A stretch of 35,098 nucleotides of DNA, taken from assembly GCA_012838435.1 (NCBI GenBank), contig DUPH01000222.1, positions 1 through 35,098 on the forward strand, read 5' to 3'. The position numbers and the translations under genes were made by a program. Each line of letters starts with the position of its first letter. Positions within the stretch are counted from its first letter, which is position 1. Shown here piece by piece: positions 19,931 to 32,141 of this stretch. Below the pieces are notes generated by a model. That model worked only from the letters and a program-made list of their open reading frames with translations, was not told where the DNA came from and made no database searches. The DNA comes from Lentisphaerota bacterium (GTDB lineage Bacteria; Verrucomicrobiota; Kiritimatiellia; RFP12; UBA1067).

Positions 19931-20130
19931 CCAGCCCTGCCCCCAAAAAAATCTGTTGGTAATGTGGGTGGCGTTCTGGGTAGAAAGTTAGAAAGTTTTG
20001 GGTTGACTTTTACCCCCCCCCCGCACAATGCGTGCCAACCATGGGAGCCGGTGAGTTGCCGGTTTACCCTGTGGGATGGTAGTGATTTCACTACTGTGAG
20101 AACATGTCATTGTCATAGAAAGGGCACACT

Positions 20131-27055: not shown

Positions 27056-28506
27056 CTAGGCATTGATATCAGATGGGCAGGAGCGCTGAAGGGAACGGCT
27101 CAGCGCGACATAGACGAGTACCGCGACGAACCAACTGGGAAAGCTGACGAAGAAGATCTTGTCCGCGCCGAAGGCCGCCAACAGTCCGACGCTGAAGACA
27201 ACGCTGGCCAGCCAGGCCGCGCCCGCCGCCCAATTCATCGGTAACCGCACATGCTCGGCGATAAACCGCCGCATGCCGAAACGCGGCAACAGCCAGTAAT
27301 CAGCGAAGATCACCGCGCCCATCGGCATCAGGATCATGCCCCACATCGCCACGAATCCCATCAGCTTCATGATCACGACCGGGAAGATCGCGGTGACGCT
27401 GGCCGCGAGTCCAGTGACCAGCGTAACCTTGGCACGCGATGCCTCGGGAACCAGCGCCTGGAAAGCGAGACCCGCGCGGTACAGCGTGGGGTTGGCCGTG
27501 GTCCAGCCGGCGATCACGACAACCAGCAGGCCCAACGCACCGCAGGCGTTGTAAGCCAGCGGACCGGGCAGCACGGCGGTATTGGTCGGATCGGCCTGAA
27601 GCTGAACCGCGTAGAGGGTCGAGGCTGCGATCCACGCCATGAAGTGGCCGAGGTACATCCCCGCCGCCGAAGAGAGCGCATACCACGATTTACGGGCGAA
27701 GCGGAAAAGCGAGAGGTCGGCCATGCCGATATGCCAGACCATGTTGCAGAACCAGGAGAAAAACATTACATGCCAGAACGTGAACTTCACCTGCCCCGGC
27801 TGCGGTTCGCCGCCGGTCCAGATGCGCGTCGAAGCGATCTCCCAGAAGTTGTCGAGTCCGGTCACGCCCATCTTGCGAAAACCGATCACGCCGAAGACCA
27901 CGAACATCACGACCATCAGCGGTGCGACCAGATTGGCGAAGGCAGCCACGACCCGGTAGCCCTTCACCGCCGCAATCGAAAAGAGCACGCCGGTCGCCAA
28001 TACCGCCACAATCCAACCGAAGCCGGTCGGCAGGGTGTCGCTCAACTCCGGCATGCGGAATTTGAAGAAGACCCCAGCACCGTGGCCGACACCGTGATCA
28101 TCGCCCCGGCTTGAACCGTGAACATCACGCCGTTGACGATGTTATAGAACACCACCAGTCTGCGGCCGCAGATCTTTTCGAGGTGGTAGTAGAGCGTCAG
28201 CCGCACGCGCGTGGCGATCGGCGCAGTGAAAAGCGTCCAGCTCAGTACGGCCAGCAGATTGCCGACGAACAGGCCAGCAAAAAAGTCGAACGCACTGACC
28301 CCCGCCGCGAGAAAGAGCGGCCCGATCATCAGCTCCGTCCCGGCGACATGCTCGCCCGCGAACTGCCCCACATAGCTTTTCAACCCCAGCCAAGCGTGCT
28401 CCGGAACCGGCTCCCGCTCATACTCGGCCCCCGAGCTTGTCTCTCCGGCCTCTTCCCGTGCACCCCTTCCAATACTCTGCTTGATTTTGCTCCATCCCAA
28501 TTGCAT
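27056..28506 (-). pseudogene. NCS1-type (cytosine/purine permease-like) transporter, frameshifted
   Basis: The start at ATG 28506 follows AAAGG. The first part runs 154 codons (EHAWLGLKSYVGQFAGEHVAGTELMIGPLFLAAGV and helices with LAVLSWTLFTAPIATRVRLTLYY) and ends in a stop at 28042. The second part (28054 to 27056) continues the same protein with further hydrophobic helices. Adding one base in the run of four G at 28072-28075 restores VLG-VFFKFRMPELSD and one protein of about 483 residues with 10-12 helices. The family is the nucleobase:cation symporters, substrate unknown; the nearby rhamnose mutarotase allows other substrates. A single-base deletion, or a sequencing error, is the cause. Confidence 0.8.
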
Positions 28507-28557
28507 CGCGGTCGCCTTTCATCATTTCTGTTCGATGCCCGGACTCTTCTTCCCTTT

Positions 28558-29383
28558 CTAATTCAGATCGAGAAGTTGCGAGAGACACTTCACAAGTGGT
28601 AGAAAAAAATCTGGAAATTGATCCGGGGCTTGAGGAACCCATTCATTATCGCTGATACTGGCCTGAAGGGTCTTCCCAGGTTTCAATACACTGGTCATGG
28701 CGTGGAGGACGGCCTTGCCCTCATTTTGCCCCTTCGAGCCCAGTTCTGATCCGGGCGGAATCGCGTCTTTGGTGTTCTTAACGACTTGAATAAAGTCGTC
28801 AGCCTTTTTATGCAGGACTGGATAAACACCTTTCGCCCGTTGCAGGAGGAGCGTTTCTAAAGAGCCGCTGCTCTGATTGTCGGGCATAACGAACACGCCA
28901 AACGGACATGTGCCTGTGGTACAAACGCCGACATGTGAAGGGAACGAGTACGTCCCGAGTAATTCATTGTCTTTACTTTTTTCGCCCCACTCAGTTTTCA
29001 GTTTATCAAATTGCTTAGGCAGATTACTGTCTGCATCCAAAATGAAACCAATCGATGACGGGCGAATATCAGTTTTGTCCAGAATTACAATCGCAGAAGA
29101 CACCCCCCCCAACAAGCTTGGAGTCACCTCCAGTAGAAATCAGAACCACACACTGTTCGTCTTTGACATGGAAAGCAGGAACGTCAGAGCGTTTGTGGAT
29201 ATCACGCTCTTCGTTTGTTGGGAATGTCTTAGGAACTAACTCTCGAACCTCGGACGGGATGTTTTCCGAGGGGTTTTCCGGGTTATCCAATTTTCTCTTC
29301 TGTTCAAAACCGAAAGCGCTGAGTAGTCTCTGAACAAAAGCAAGGTCGTGTGCACCTTCAACTGCGATGAGATCGACACGCAT
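28558..29383 (-). CDS. TOPRIM (DUF3226-like) protein split by a frameshift at a G8 tract
   Basis: The ATG at 29383 lies 3 nt after the ATPase stop. The first frame has LIAVEGAHDLAFVQRLLSAF (TOPRIM Glu9) and runs to KLVGGG, then goes out of frame. The second frame resumes VSSAIVILDKTDIRPSS and contains IGFILDADSN, the TOPRIM DxD (about residues 116-118). The frames meet at a run of eight G (complement of 29103-29110); seven would give one 274-residue protein. TOPRIM domains of this kind cut nucleic acid in OLD-type systems. As written the gene yields only a 104-residue N-terminal piece with the Glu but without DxD. Slippage, RNA editing-like polymerase stutter or sequencing error could restore it. 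The region is poorer in G+C than its neighbours. Confidence 0.75.
29103..29110 (-). repeat. G8 homopolymer in the TOPRIM gene
   Basis: Eight G on the coding strand, at the exact junction of the two reading frames of the TOPRIM gene. Such tracts slip readily during replication and transcription. Confidence 0.9.
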
Positions 29384-29386
29384 GGA

Positions 29387-30499
29387 TTACCTGATCTCCA
29401 AGCCACCATGAACCCGAAGGTCTGTCAGCAGGTTATAGTTCAACCGTTTAGCGAGATGATCTTCTTTGCTCAGACGGTACGTGACAAATTCATCGGGCGT
29501 CTCTTTTGCAGATAAGAGCACAGCATCTACAGCCTCAAGGCTGTGAGTTGTTGCAAAAATCTGAATGTGGTTCTCCCGTGCCGCCTTGAACAACCATTTC
29601 ATGATCTCCGGCAAAACGAACGCATGGATGCCGCTCTCGATCTCATCCAAAAGCAAGAGGCCATTTTTGGCTGTAACGAGTCCCGTCACTATGAAAAGCA
29701 CACGCTTCATGCCGTCTCCAAAAACCATGAGCGGCGCCTCGCCAAAATCCTTGTGTTCAACCCTCAGGTAAGGTCGGCGGTTTTCGGACGCAACACTGAT
29801 ACTCTCTATGCCGGAATCAAACATTCGCGCAAGTTCGAGAAGGTCTTTTTGTTGATCGACCTTCAACTTTGAATACTTGTCGGCGCAGCGTTCAGCAAAA
29901 CGGTATTCGAATCCCAAAACTGCGGCCACAGGAAACGCGAATGAATTAGCGCGTCTCCGAATAAAGGGGACGTCTTGCCAAAAACGGCGGGTAACGGACT
30001 CCGCAACGGTCGACGAGCCGTCCTGAGCACGTATAGAGTCCAATTTGATCTCAATCCCCTCATAGGTTCCACCTGTTGCGGGATTAGAGTCTAGGGGTCG
30101 TTTCGCCAAATACCTAAGATCCTCTTCATCTGGCATACCGAAGACAGGTTGAACACTTGCCTTGACCTCTCGGACAGGACATGCCCCAGTACTGGAAAGC
30201 TGAATCGAACCAGAGCTACCAGTATCCGTTTGTTTCGTGTACGGGAACATCCACACCAAACAGTCGTTCAACGAATGGGTCGAAAACAAACGTGAACTTG
30301 TGTTTCTGGCGTTTGCTATTCTAGCCCAATCAGCCGGGTCTTCCGGATTACAAAAGGCTTGCAGGGCCTCAAGCACCGAGGTTTTACCTGAATTGTTGCC
30401 GCCGATCAAAAGGTTGAAGCGCCCCAGCCGCTCAAAAGTCATACCTTGAAGCCCACGGAATGCCCCGATTGTAAAGGAATTAAGATGGTAAGTACTCAT
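29387..30499 (-). CDS. OLD-like AAA/ABC-type ATPase, candidate defence component
   Basis: A 370-residue ATPase of the SMC/OLD type. It starts MSTYHLNSFTIGAFRGLQG with Walker A GGNNSGKTS (33-41). FGDGMKRVLFIVTGLV is the ABC-signature region, NGLLLLDEIESGIHAFVLPEI holds Walker B (Asp285-Glu286) and the D-loop, and ATTHSLEAVDAVL the switch His. It has no TOPRIM domain of its own; that is supplied by the next gene, 3 nt downstream. Split ATPase/TOPRIM pairs are found in anti-phage systems such as PARIS, and fused ones in OLD and Gabija GajA. The ATG at 30499 is chosen; a TTG nine codons earlier is possible. The two genes are probably an operon acquired by transfer. Confidence 0.87.
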   Translation of the reverse strand: MSTYHLNSFTIGAFRGLQGMTFERLGRFNLLIGGNNSGKTSVLEALQAFCNPEDPADWARIANARNTSSRLFSTHSLNDCLVWMFPYTKQTDTGSSGSIQLSSTGACPVREVKASVQPVFGMPDEEDLRYLAKRPLDSNPATGGTYEGIEIKLDSIRAQDGSSTVAESVTRRFWQDVPFIRRRANSFAFPVAAVLGFEYRFAERCADKYSKLKVDQQKDLLELARMFDSGIESISVASENRRPYLRVEHKDFGEAPLMVFGDGMKRVLFIVTGLVTAKNGLLLLDEIESGIHAFVLPEIMKWLFKAARENHIQIFATTHSLEAVDAVLLSAKETPDEFVTYRLSKEDHLAKRLNYNLLTDLRVHGGLEIR

Positions 30500-30620
30500 T
30501 TTGTCTAACCCCGTACCAATCCACAAACACCGTCATCTTAGCGGTTTGAAGTTCAGACGACAATAACCGAAATCGGGCACCCATATCCTCTGCAATCCCC
30601 TCGACCGTGCCACACGGCGC

Positions 30621-31997
30621 TCACTCCTGCGGACGAGCAATCTTGAAGGTCCAGGCGTACTCGCAGGGCAGGGTGCCGGGATTGACCACGGGCGGTTTGA
30701 TCGTGAGCACCCCGTCGCTGCACGTGAACGTGACCGGCAAAGGACTGCCGAGCAGCGAAACCGAGTCGGCCTTGGCGATGTGGTTGACCACCAGCGGCGC
30801 TTGCGGCCAGCGCGCGCAGATCACATAGAGGGCATCCGGTTTCTGAGTGAAATAGACCTTGGTTTCGCGCATGTTCTTGGGACGGTGCCGCCAGGCGGTG
30901 GTGCCGTAAATCGCCTCGCCGTTGACGCTCAGCCAACGCCCCATATCAAGCAGGCGTTCTTCCATAATCACCGGGATGAGGCCGTCGGCCTGCGGACCGA
31001 TATTGAGCAGCAGGTTGCCGCCGCGACTGACCTTCTCGATCAAGGTCTCTACGCACTGTGCACTGGTCATGTAATGCGCGGTGGTCTCAAAACGGTTAAA
31101 GCCGAACGAACCGCCGATGCCGCGGCACTCCTCCCACGGATGCGTGAACTGGGTATCAAGCGAGCTACCCGAATGAACCAGATCGTATTCGGTCGTGTAG
31201 TGGTCGCCATGCTTGCCGCGCGTCTTTTTGCCCCAGCGGTCATTGACCACCACGCTCTCCTTGACCGGCGATTCGTTGTACAGCCAGGCCAAGAAATCGA
31301 CGCTGCGCAGCTCTTCGTCGGAGTAGTCCCACTCGCCGTCGGCCCAGACTATATCGGGCTCGTAGCGCGTGACCAGCTCTTTCATCTGCGGCAGGTTCAT
31401 CTCCGCGACCCACCGGCCGATATTCTCCTTGTAGAGCGGGTTGCCCCACTCGAGCAGCGAGTAGTAGAAGCCCATGCGCAAACCGGCCTGCTTGACCGCC
31501 GCAGTCAGCTCGCCGGCAAGGTCGCGGTGCGGTCCGAGCACCTGCGCGTTCCAGCGCGGGCTGTAAGCGCTCGGCCAAAGCGCGAAGCCGTCGTGGTGCT
31601 TCGACGTAAGCACCACATACCGCGCACCGGACTTCTTGAAGAGATCGGCCCACTGGACAGGATCAAAGTGCTCGGCGCGGAACTGCGTGGCGAAGTCCGC
31701 ATAGGTGACGTTGGTGCCGTAGGTGCGGGCATGGAAGTTGGTGAAGGCCGCGTTGTTGGAGCGCATGCGGTTGTCGTAGTGCTCCGAATACTTGGCGTAG
31801 ACATTGGCCGCGTCGGTCGGCGCGTAGGCCGGTACCGAGTAAACGCCCCAATGGATAAAGATGCCGAACTTGGCCTCCTGCCACCACTGCGGAATCGGGC
31901 GTTTGTCGAGCGACTCCCACTCCGCCTTATACGGTTCAGCGCGCAACGCGAGCGCGGCACAAGCAATAAGAACACACGGCATCAAGTAACGTTTCAT
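30621..31997 (-). CDS. secreted alpha-L-fucosidase, GH29
   Basis: A 458-residue glycoside hydrolase that releases terminal L-fucose from glycans. MKRYLMPCVLIACAALALRA is a signal peptide. KFGIFIHWGVYSVPAY, YVVLTSKHHDGFALWPS and PDIVWADGEWDY are GH29 hallmarks; Asp220 in WADGEWD is the expected nucleophile. NLLLNIGPQADGLIP and GRWLSVNGEAIYGT close the barrel, and a short beta domain follows (about 380-458). GGAGG lies 5 nt before ATG 31997; the frame extends 34 codons further but without support. With rhaM this suggests use of fucose- and rhamnose-containing polysaccharides such as those of algae. No sulfatase or other fucose gene is in view. Confidence 0.95.
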   Translation of the reverse strand: MKRYLMPCVLIACAALALRAEPYKAEWESLDKRPIPQWWQEAKFGIFIHWGVYSVPAYAPTDAANVYAKYSEHYDNRMRSNNAAFTNFHARTYGTNVTYADFATQFRAEHFDPVQWADLFKKSGARYVVLTSKHHDGFALWPSAYSPRWNAQVLGPHRDLAGELTAAVKQAGLRMGFYYSLLEWGNPLYKENIGRWVAEMNLPQMKELVTRYEPDIVWADGEWDYSDEELRSVDFLAWLYNESPVKESVVVNDRWGKKTRGKHGDHYTTEYDLVHSGSSLDTQFTHPWEECRGIGGSFGFNRFETTAHYMTSAQCVETLIEKVSRGGNLLLNIGPQADGLIPVIMEERLLDMGRWLSVNGEAIYGTTAWRHRPKNMRETKVYFTQKPDALYVICARWPQAPLVVNHIAKADSVSLLGSPLPVTFTCSDGVLTIKPPVVNPGTLPCEYAWTFKIARPQE

Positions 31998-32141
31998 AGG
32001 AGCCTCCAAGGTTGTTGCGTATAAACCGATTCCGGTCATACAGGACACAACATAGCTTACACACCCCGGCCCATAGAAACAAGCCCCACGGTAGCACATT
32101 TCGTAATTTCGTAATCGTAATCGGTTGATGACAGGGGTGTG

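What the first reader, a model, noticed from the sequence alone, without database searches (positions are those of the whole stretch)
28558..30499. Candidate two-gene anti-phage module: OLD-like ATPase plus separate TOPRIM protein
An ATPase with Walker A GGNNSGKTS, DEIESGIH and ATTHS is followed after 3 nt by a gene with the TOPRIM Glu (VEGAHD) and DxD (ILDADS). Known systems have this chemistry fused (OLD, Gabija GajA) or split (PARIS, with a DUF4435 TOPRIM). Here the TOPRIM partner looks DUF3226-like, a different subfamily, so this may be a distinct split class. The pair is poorer in G+C than its neighbours and sits between metabolic genes, as acquired defence genes do.
Basis: partly seen in the sequence, partly recalled or inferred. 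Interest (0 to 1): 0.72.

Follow-up and report, generated by a model that had tools for sequence, protein, structure and literature searches.

The report
Acquired split ATPase–TOPRIM module, nuclease broken
This is a horizontally acquired two-gene module of an ATPase and a separate TOPRIM nuclease, a widespread and untested phage-defence candidate that PADLOC already lists as PDC-M38; in this genome the nuclease gene is broken by a frameshift and the restriction gene beside it has been deleted.

Summary
The pair is real. ATPase 29387-30499(-) is an intact 370-aa OLD/AbiL-type ATPase. Three bases later comes a DUF3226 (PF11536) gene. The same G8 is in a 98.8%-identical contig; intact copies exist in two relatives.

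Both proteins match PADLOC's PDC-M38A/B, so the module is already catalogued. I found no paper on it. Linkage is near-universal: 78 of 80 ATPase loci from GTDB have the partner or its remains next door, and 20 of 20 DUF3226 loci in the phylum have the ATPase upstream. A family member folds like the OLD TOPRIM region, and by alignment the family keeps the OLD two-metal catalytic residues.

The module is acquired. Three congeners have an empty site (fucosidase–MmeI restriction gene), one has fucosidase–intact pair–MmeI, and the window has fucosidase–pair–first ~28 MmeI codons fused to a broken permease. In another genus the pair follows a type I R-M system.

Likely mechanism (inferred): the ATPase senses infection and releases or activates the nuclease, as in PARIS. 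This copy is probably inactive.

The parts
29387..30499 (-). ATPase gene, 370 aa, intact (PDC-M38A; AAA_21/AAA_15); C-terminus GGLEIR
   Evidence: model pLDDT 89.6, Rad50/SMC/PtuA/GajA fold; E368 and R370 invariant among the 9 sequences of A1
28558..29383 (-). DUF3226 TOPRIM nuclease gene (PDC-M38B), interrupted reading frame
29069..29383 (-). 5' fragment ORF (104 aa) carrying the TOPRIM Glu and the Asp four residues later (VEGAHD)
28558..29127 (-). 3' fragment ORF (189 aa) carrying DAD (29029-29037), the helical-domain Glu (SGSLE) and the conserved Lys (NEGKAV)
29103..29110 (-). G8 run at which the reading frame is lost
28524..30620 (-). inserted segment (about 2.1 kb) relative to the empty fucosidase-MmeI site of congeners
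28423..28506 (-). remnant: first ~28 codons of an MmeI-like type IIG restriction gene
   Evidence: aligned with L008:3488-4978
27056..28422 (-). cytosine-permease-like sequence fused to the MmeI remnant, itself frameshifted near 28071
30621..32003 (-). alpha-L-fucosidase, left flank of the insertion, conserved in 5 of 5 genus genomes

Best explanation
It is a horizontally acquired copy of a widespread split OLD-type module (PADLOC PDC-M38), inserted beside a type IIG restriction gene. The intact module most likely works like PARIS or AbiL: an ABC-type ATPase assembles into an oligomer that holds or controls a separate two-metal TOPRIM nuclease; infection changes the ATPase state; the nuclease is then freed and cuts nucleic acid (tRNA or DNA), stopping phage growth by growth arrest or cell death. 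Shown here: the two genes, their linkage, the fold of a family member, the conserved catalytic residues by alignment, the insertion and the patchy distribution. Inferred: defence function, sensing, the target and the release step. In this genome the nuclease frame is lost and the adjacent restriction gene is deleted, so the copy is most likely a decaying remnant with only the ATPase intact.
For: PDC-M38A 4e-63 and PDC-M38B hits; all 30 partners tested match PF11536 and 29 match PDC-M38B. Linkage: 72 of 80 loci with an intact partner (66 within -20..+10 nt), 6 more truncated or decayed; 20 of 20 reciprocal. TOPRIM model of homologue L036, pLDDT 91, with PDB matches to OLD C-terminal regions at Z 8.7-9.2 (rmsd 4.5-4.7, 168-175 aligned), above unrelated rows at 7.2 or less. 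BpOLD ligands E400/E404/D455/D457/E508 and K562 (PMC6755086) match conserved E9/D13/D116/D118/E177/K224. Empty sites in G001, G002, G004; filled in G003 and the window. The G003 pair is nearer to that of another genus (90% aa) than to the window's (78%). Type I R-M directly upstream in G028. Pair as main cargo of ~4-kb ColE1-type plasmids.
Against: No phage assay exists for any DUF3226 pair that I could find. Enrichment of other defence genes beside the 80 loci is only modest against a rough control (108 versus 32 PADLOC families at E 1e-15). One OLD-family protein, archaeal Cran1, works in cell-cycle progression and gave no defence (PMC12796447). HGT rests on topology and patchiness; synonymous distances are near saturation.
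Confidence: 0.75

Rival explanations
1. The pair is primarily a toxin-antitoxin or selfish plasmid-stabilisation module: the TOPRIM protein is a toxin held by the ATPase, with phage defence secondary.
For: Pairs of an AAA protein with a separate TOPRIM toxin were validated by toxicity neutralisation (PMC10440598); F. nucleatum AbiLii is toxic in E. coli, though AbiLi did not neutralise it (PMC3985639). Tiny plasmids carry the pair as main cargo. Four loci in the survey have a decayed nuclease and an intact ATPase (L041, L043, L064, L083), as does the window.
Against: Position beside R-M genes in two genera. The nuclease-lost-first pattern is biased, because the search required the ATPase.
Confidence: 0.2
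2. The G8 run is a functional switch: slippage during replication (phase variation) or during transcription or translation restores the nuclease in some cells or molecules.
For: The run lies between the two catalytic halves, both of which remain otherwise open; the ATPase and flanks are conserved; the same G8 is in two assemblies.
Against: No length variation seen (n=2). Relatives lack a G run. The neighbouring MmeI and permease genes are also destroyed, which points to decay. Many of the other G8-or-longer runs sampled in this genome lie in intact genes or between genes.
Confidence: 0.08
3. The frameshift is an assembly or sequencing error and the module is intact.
For: It is in a homopolymer of a metagenome-type assembly (449 contigs).
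Against: The same G8 is in a second assembly that differs by point changes; no other indel separates the two across the ATPase, TOPRIM and fucosidase genes; intact long ORFs carry G8 elsewhere in this genome.
Confidence: 0.12

Closest known systems
PADLOC candidate PDC-M38 (M38A + M38B)
   Same: Same ATPase family (4e-63), same DUF3226 partner family, same order and adjacency.
   Different: In the window the B gene is frame-broken; the candidate has no published test that I found.
PARIS (AriA/AriB; OLD class 4)
   Same: Split ABC ATPase plus TOPRIM nuclease encoded side by side.
   Different: AriB is a DUF4435 protein; here it is DUF3226. The ATPase scores higher with PDC-M38A and AbiLi than with AriA.
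AbiL (AbiLi/AbiLii, RloB-type TOPRIM)
   Same: Split ATPase plus TOPRIM; the ATPase matches an AbiLi model at 1e-40.
   Different: No partner of 30 matched AbiLii at E 0.01.
OLD class 1/2 and Gabija GajA
   Same: ATPase fold (GajA Z 16.8); TOPRIM plus helical domain fold (Z about 9); by alignment the same metal-ligand set.
   Different: Two separate genes; no helicase partner among the neighbours.
PH0156 of Pyrococcus horikoshii (PDB 2p62)
   Same: Closest solved fold, Z 15.0 over 220 residues.
   Different: 16% identity; hypothetical protein without known function.

Membership tests
PADLOC PDC-M38 | ATPase matching PDC-M38A | tested here: met
   E 4.2e-63 over 4-370
PADLOC PDC-M38 | adjacent partner matching PDC-M38B | tested here: met
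   fragments 1.5e-7 and 2.5e-12; intact orthologues in G003 and G028 4e-12 and 8e-14
PADLOC PDC-M38 | both genes with an open reading frame in this genome | tested here: not met
   partner split by G8
PARIS (OLD class 4) | TOPRIM partner of the AriB/DUF4435 family | tested here: not met
   DUF3226 above its cut-off, no DUF4435 or AriB match for the window protein; among 30 homologues only 1-2 weak hits
PARIS (OLD class 4) | ATPase hexamer sequestering the nuclease, released by a phage protein | not testable with these tools
   no complex prediction or assay available
AbiL | AbiLii/RloB-type partner | tested here: not met
   no AbiLii hit in 30 partners at E 0.01
OLD class 1/2 (fused) | ATPase and TOPRIM in one polypeptide | tested here: not met
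   separate genes in the window, G003 and G028, and in all 72 survey loci with an intact partner
OLD-type TOPRIM fold | TOPRIM plus helical domain with the two-metal residues | tested here: met
   fold of homologue L036; residues by alignment
Anti-phage defence system | protection against phage | not testable with these tools
   needs plaque assays
Toxin-antitoxin pair | toxic nuclease neutralised by the ATPase | not testable with these tools
   needs expression assays

The most novel reading that the evidence does not exclude
The DUF3226 pairs are a separate class of split OLD immunity with their own trigger and nucleic-acid target, and in this lineage the nuclease arm is switched on and off by slippage at a G8 run inside its catalytic domain, so that the ATPase is always made and the costly nuclease only in a minority of cells.
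Probability: 0.06. Interest if true: 0.65.

Novelty: new member of a known kind. Interest (0 to 1): 0.42.

Why it matters
A split ATPase/TOPRIM module found across many bacterial phyla, in some archaea, in viral contigs and as main cargo of small Klebsiella, Salmonella and E. coli plasmids has no published function that I could find. The fold and conserved residues say that the DUF3226 'unknown function' family is an OLD-type two-metal nuclease, which makes it directly testable. The locus also gives an empty, filled and decayed series of one defence insertion site within one genus, in which the nuclease has lost its frame while the ATPase stays intact.

Tried and rejected
Phage records: no match to the ATPase. 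Papers naming DUF3226 or PDC-M38: none in the held library. Solved structures by sequence: only weak hits (2p62 E 0.03, AriB E 0.17). Foldseek alone gave only 2p62 below E 0.001; the OLD match came from VIA-align. AriB did not appear in the fold list; that is not evidence of a different fold. Genome-wide phase variation: some 50 G8-or-longer runs in 4 Mb, many inside intact genes or between genes, so no sign of a switch system. dN/dS of the two TOPRIM fragments: still low (0.20 and 0.27 against G003), so the break is recent or the test lacks power. A PADLOC control for neighbours was rough, using other genomes and a simple ORF picker, so the enrichment is called modest. The window TOPRIM itself was not folded; a homologue was used. 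G066 as an independent host of the module: rejected as likely mis-binning, since its VatB is 82% identical to that of G000 while the contig is 98.8% identical.

Full report
The locus. On the minus strand, 29387-30499 encodes a 370-aa ATPase with Walker A GGNNSGKTS, Walker B LLLDEIESGIH and ATTHS. Pfam gives AAA_21 and AAA_15. The best defence model is PADLOC PDC-M38A, E 4e-63, ahead of AbiLi (1e-40) and AriA (1e-26). Three bases after its stop an ATG opens a DUF3226 gene. G+C of the pair is 49% against about 61% in the flanking genes.

VEGAHD lies in ORF 29069-29383 and ILDADS in ORF 28558-29127 in another frame. The change of frame falls at a run of eight G (29103-29110 on the minus strand). 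An almost identical contig binned in another genome (G066:C434, 98.8% identical) has the same G8. Orthologues in G003 (same genus, 278 aa) and G028 (same family, 274 aa) are uninterrupted and have no G run. A sequencing error is unlikely: the two assemblies differ by substitutions but by no other indel across the ATPase, TOPRIM and fucosidase genes, and several G8 runs elsewhere in this genome sit inside long intact ORFs. So in this strain the TOPRIM Glu and the DxD cannot be on one normally translated chain.

What the partner is. The two fragments match DUF3226 (1e-15 for the C-terminal part) and PDC-M38B; the intact orthologues match both. A model of a family member (L036 partner, about 30% identical to the G028 orthologue) has pLDDT 91. 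VIA-align places it on PDB 2p62 (PH0156, Z 15.0, 220 aligned, rmsd 3.6) and then on the C-terminal regions of class 2 OLD proteins (6njv, 6njx, 6nk8, 6njw; Z 9.2-8.7, 168-175 aligned, rmsd 4.5-4.7), above unrelated rows at 7.2 or less. In Burkholderia OLD the metal ligands are E400, E404, D455, D457, T506 and E508, with K562 nearby (PMC6755086). In 38 DUF3226 partners the conserved acidic and basic positions have the same order and spacing logic: E9, D13 (four on), D116 and D118, E177 at the start of the helical part, K224. The correspondence is by sequence and order; I could not superpose coordinates.

Linkage. A scan of GTDB species genomes returned 80 ATPase relatives from many phyla. Of these, 72 have a TOPRIM partner with its Glu motif immediately downstream, 66 of them within -20 to +10 nt. 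Six of the other eight show a partner in truncated or decayed form: L087 is cut by its contig end, and L041, L043, L064, L083 and L102 are broken. Only L062 and L093 have none. Starting from DUF3226 in 388 genomes of the phylum, all 20 loci have the ATPase just upstream. Viral contigs also hold pairs, e.g. L114-L118 and L132. Small plasmids of Klebsiella, Salmonella and E. coli carry the ATPase; where the gene table shows the partner it is annotated DUF3226 and the pair is the main cargo. The ATPase C-terminus ends in [ED]-x-R in nearly all relatives; I suggest, without proof, that it docks the partner.

How it got here. All five genomes of the genus have the fucosidase gene. In G001, G002 and G004 it is followed directly by an MmeI-like type IIG restriction gene. 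In G003 the intact pair sits between the two; the G003 MmeI matches PADLOC type IIG at 3e-171 and Pfam MmeI domains. In the window the order is fucosidase, pair, then about 28 codons of the MmeI start (28423-28506) fused to a cytosine-permease sequence that has its own frameshift. The G003 ATPase is 90% identical to that of G028, another genus, but 78% to the window's, although G003 and the window are congeners whose fucosidases are 93% identical. In G028 the pair stands directly downstream, same strand, of type I R-M genes. So the pair moves, and lands beside restriction genes. Synonymous distances are high, so the direction and date of transfer are not resolved.

Mechanism. The closest understood relative in architecture is PARIS: the AriA hexamer holds AriB, a phage protein triggers release, and the AriB dimer cuts tRNA (PMC12409363). 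AbiL is another split ATPase/TOPRIM system, and AAA-neutralised TOPRIM toxins have been validated (PMC10440598). By analogy the DUF3226 nuclease should be held in check by the ATPase and freed or activated on infection. The trigger, target and oligomeric state are untested.

Novelty and verdict. PADLOC lists the two families as one candidate, PDC-M38, so this is not a new class found here; it is a new, damaged member. No held paper names DUF3226 or PDC-M38. What this work adds is the OLD-type active site for DUF3226, the near-complete linkage, the empty/filled/decayed series at one site, and the broken nuclease. I give 0.75 to the acquired split OLD-type defence module with a decaying copy here, 0.20 to toxin-antitoxin as the primary role, 0.12 to a sequence error at the G run and 0.08 to a G8 switch; these readings are not all mutually exclusive.

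Noticed in passing
L010:6087-7720 (G000:C448, minus strand): A second ATPase/DUF3226 pair in the same genome, only distantly related, is inserted between V-type ATPase subunits A and B; in G004 and G066 these two genes are adjacent with nothing between.
   Followed up: partly
L010:1536-2296: An MNT nucleotidyltransferase/HEPN gene pair lies in the same V-ATPase operon, before subunit K.
   Followed up: partly
L231:29-469 (G028:C321): A DUF488-like gene, judged by eye, is the ORF picked upstream of V-ATPase subunit B in G028; this operon may be a general insertion site.
   Followed up: no
L041, L043, L064, L083: Loci with an intact ATPase and a decayed TOPRIM partner, as in the window; possible nuclease-first loss, but the search was biased to the ATPase.
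   Followed up: partly
L156, L157, L154: Klebsiella and Salmonella plasmids of about 4 kb carry an ATPase plus DUF3226 protein as main cargo; 134 Klebsiella plasmid records hold the ATPase.
   Followed up: partly
window 20013-20022: A C10 run in a low-G+C stretch (48% at 20-21 kb) without a long ORF over it.
   Followed up: no
L007 (G066:C434): Contig 98.8% identical to the window but binned in a genome of another family; probably mis-binned. Its permease has its own different indel.
   Followed up: partly
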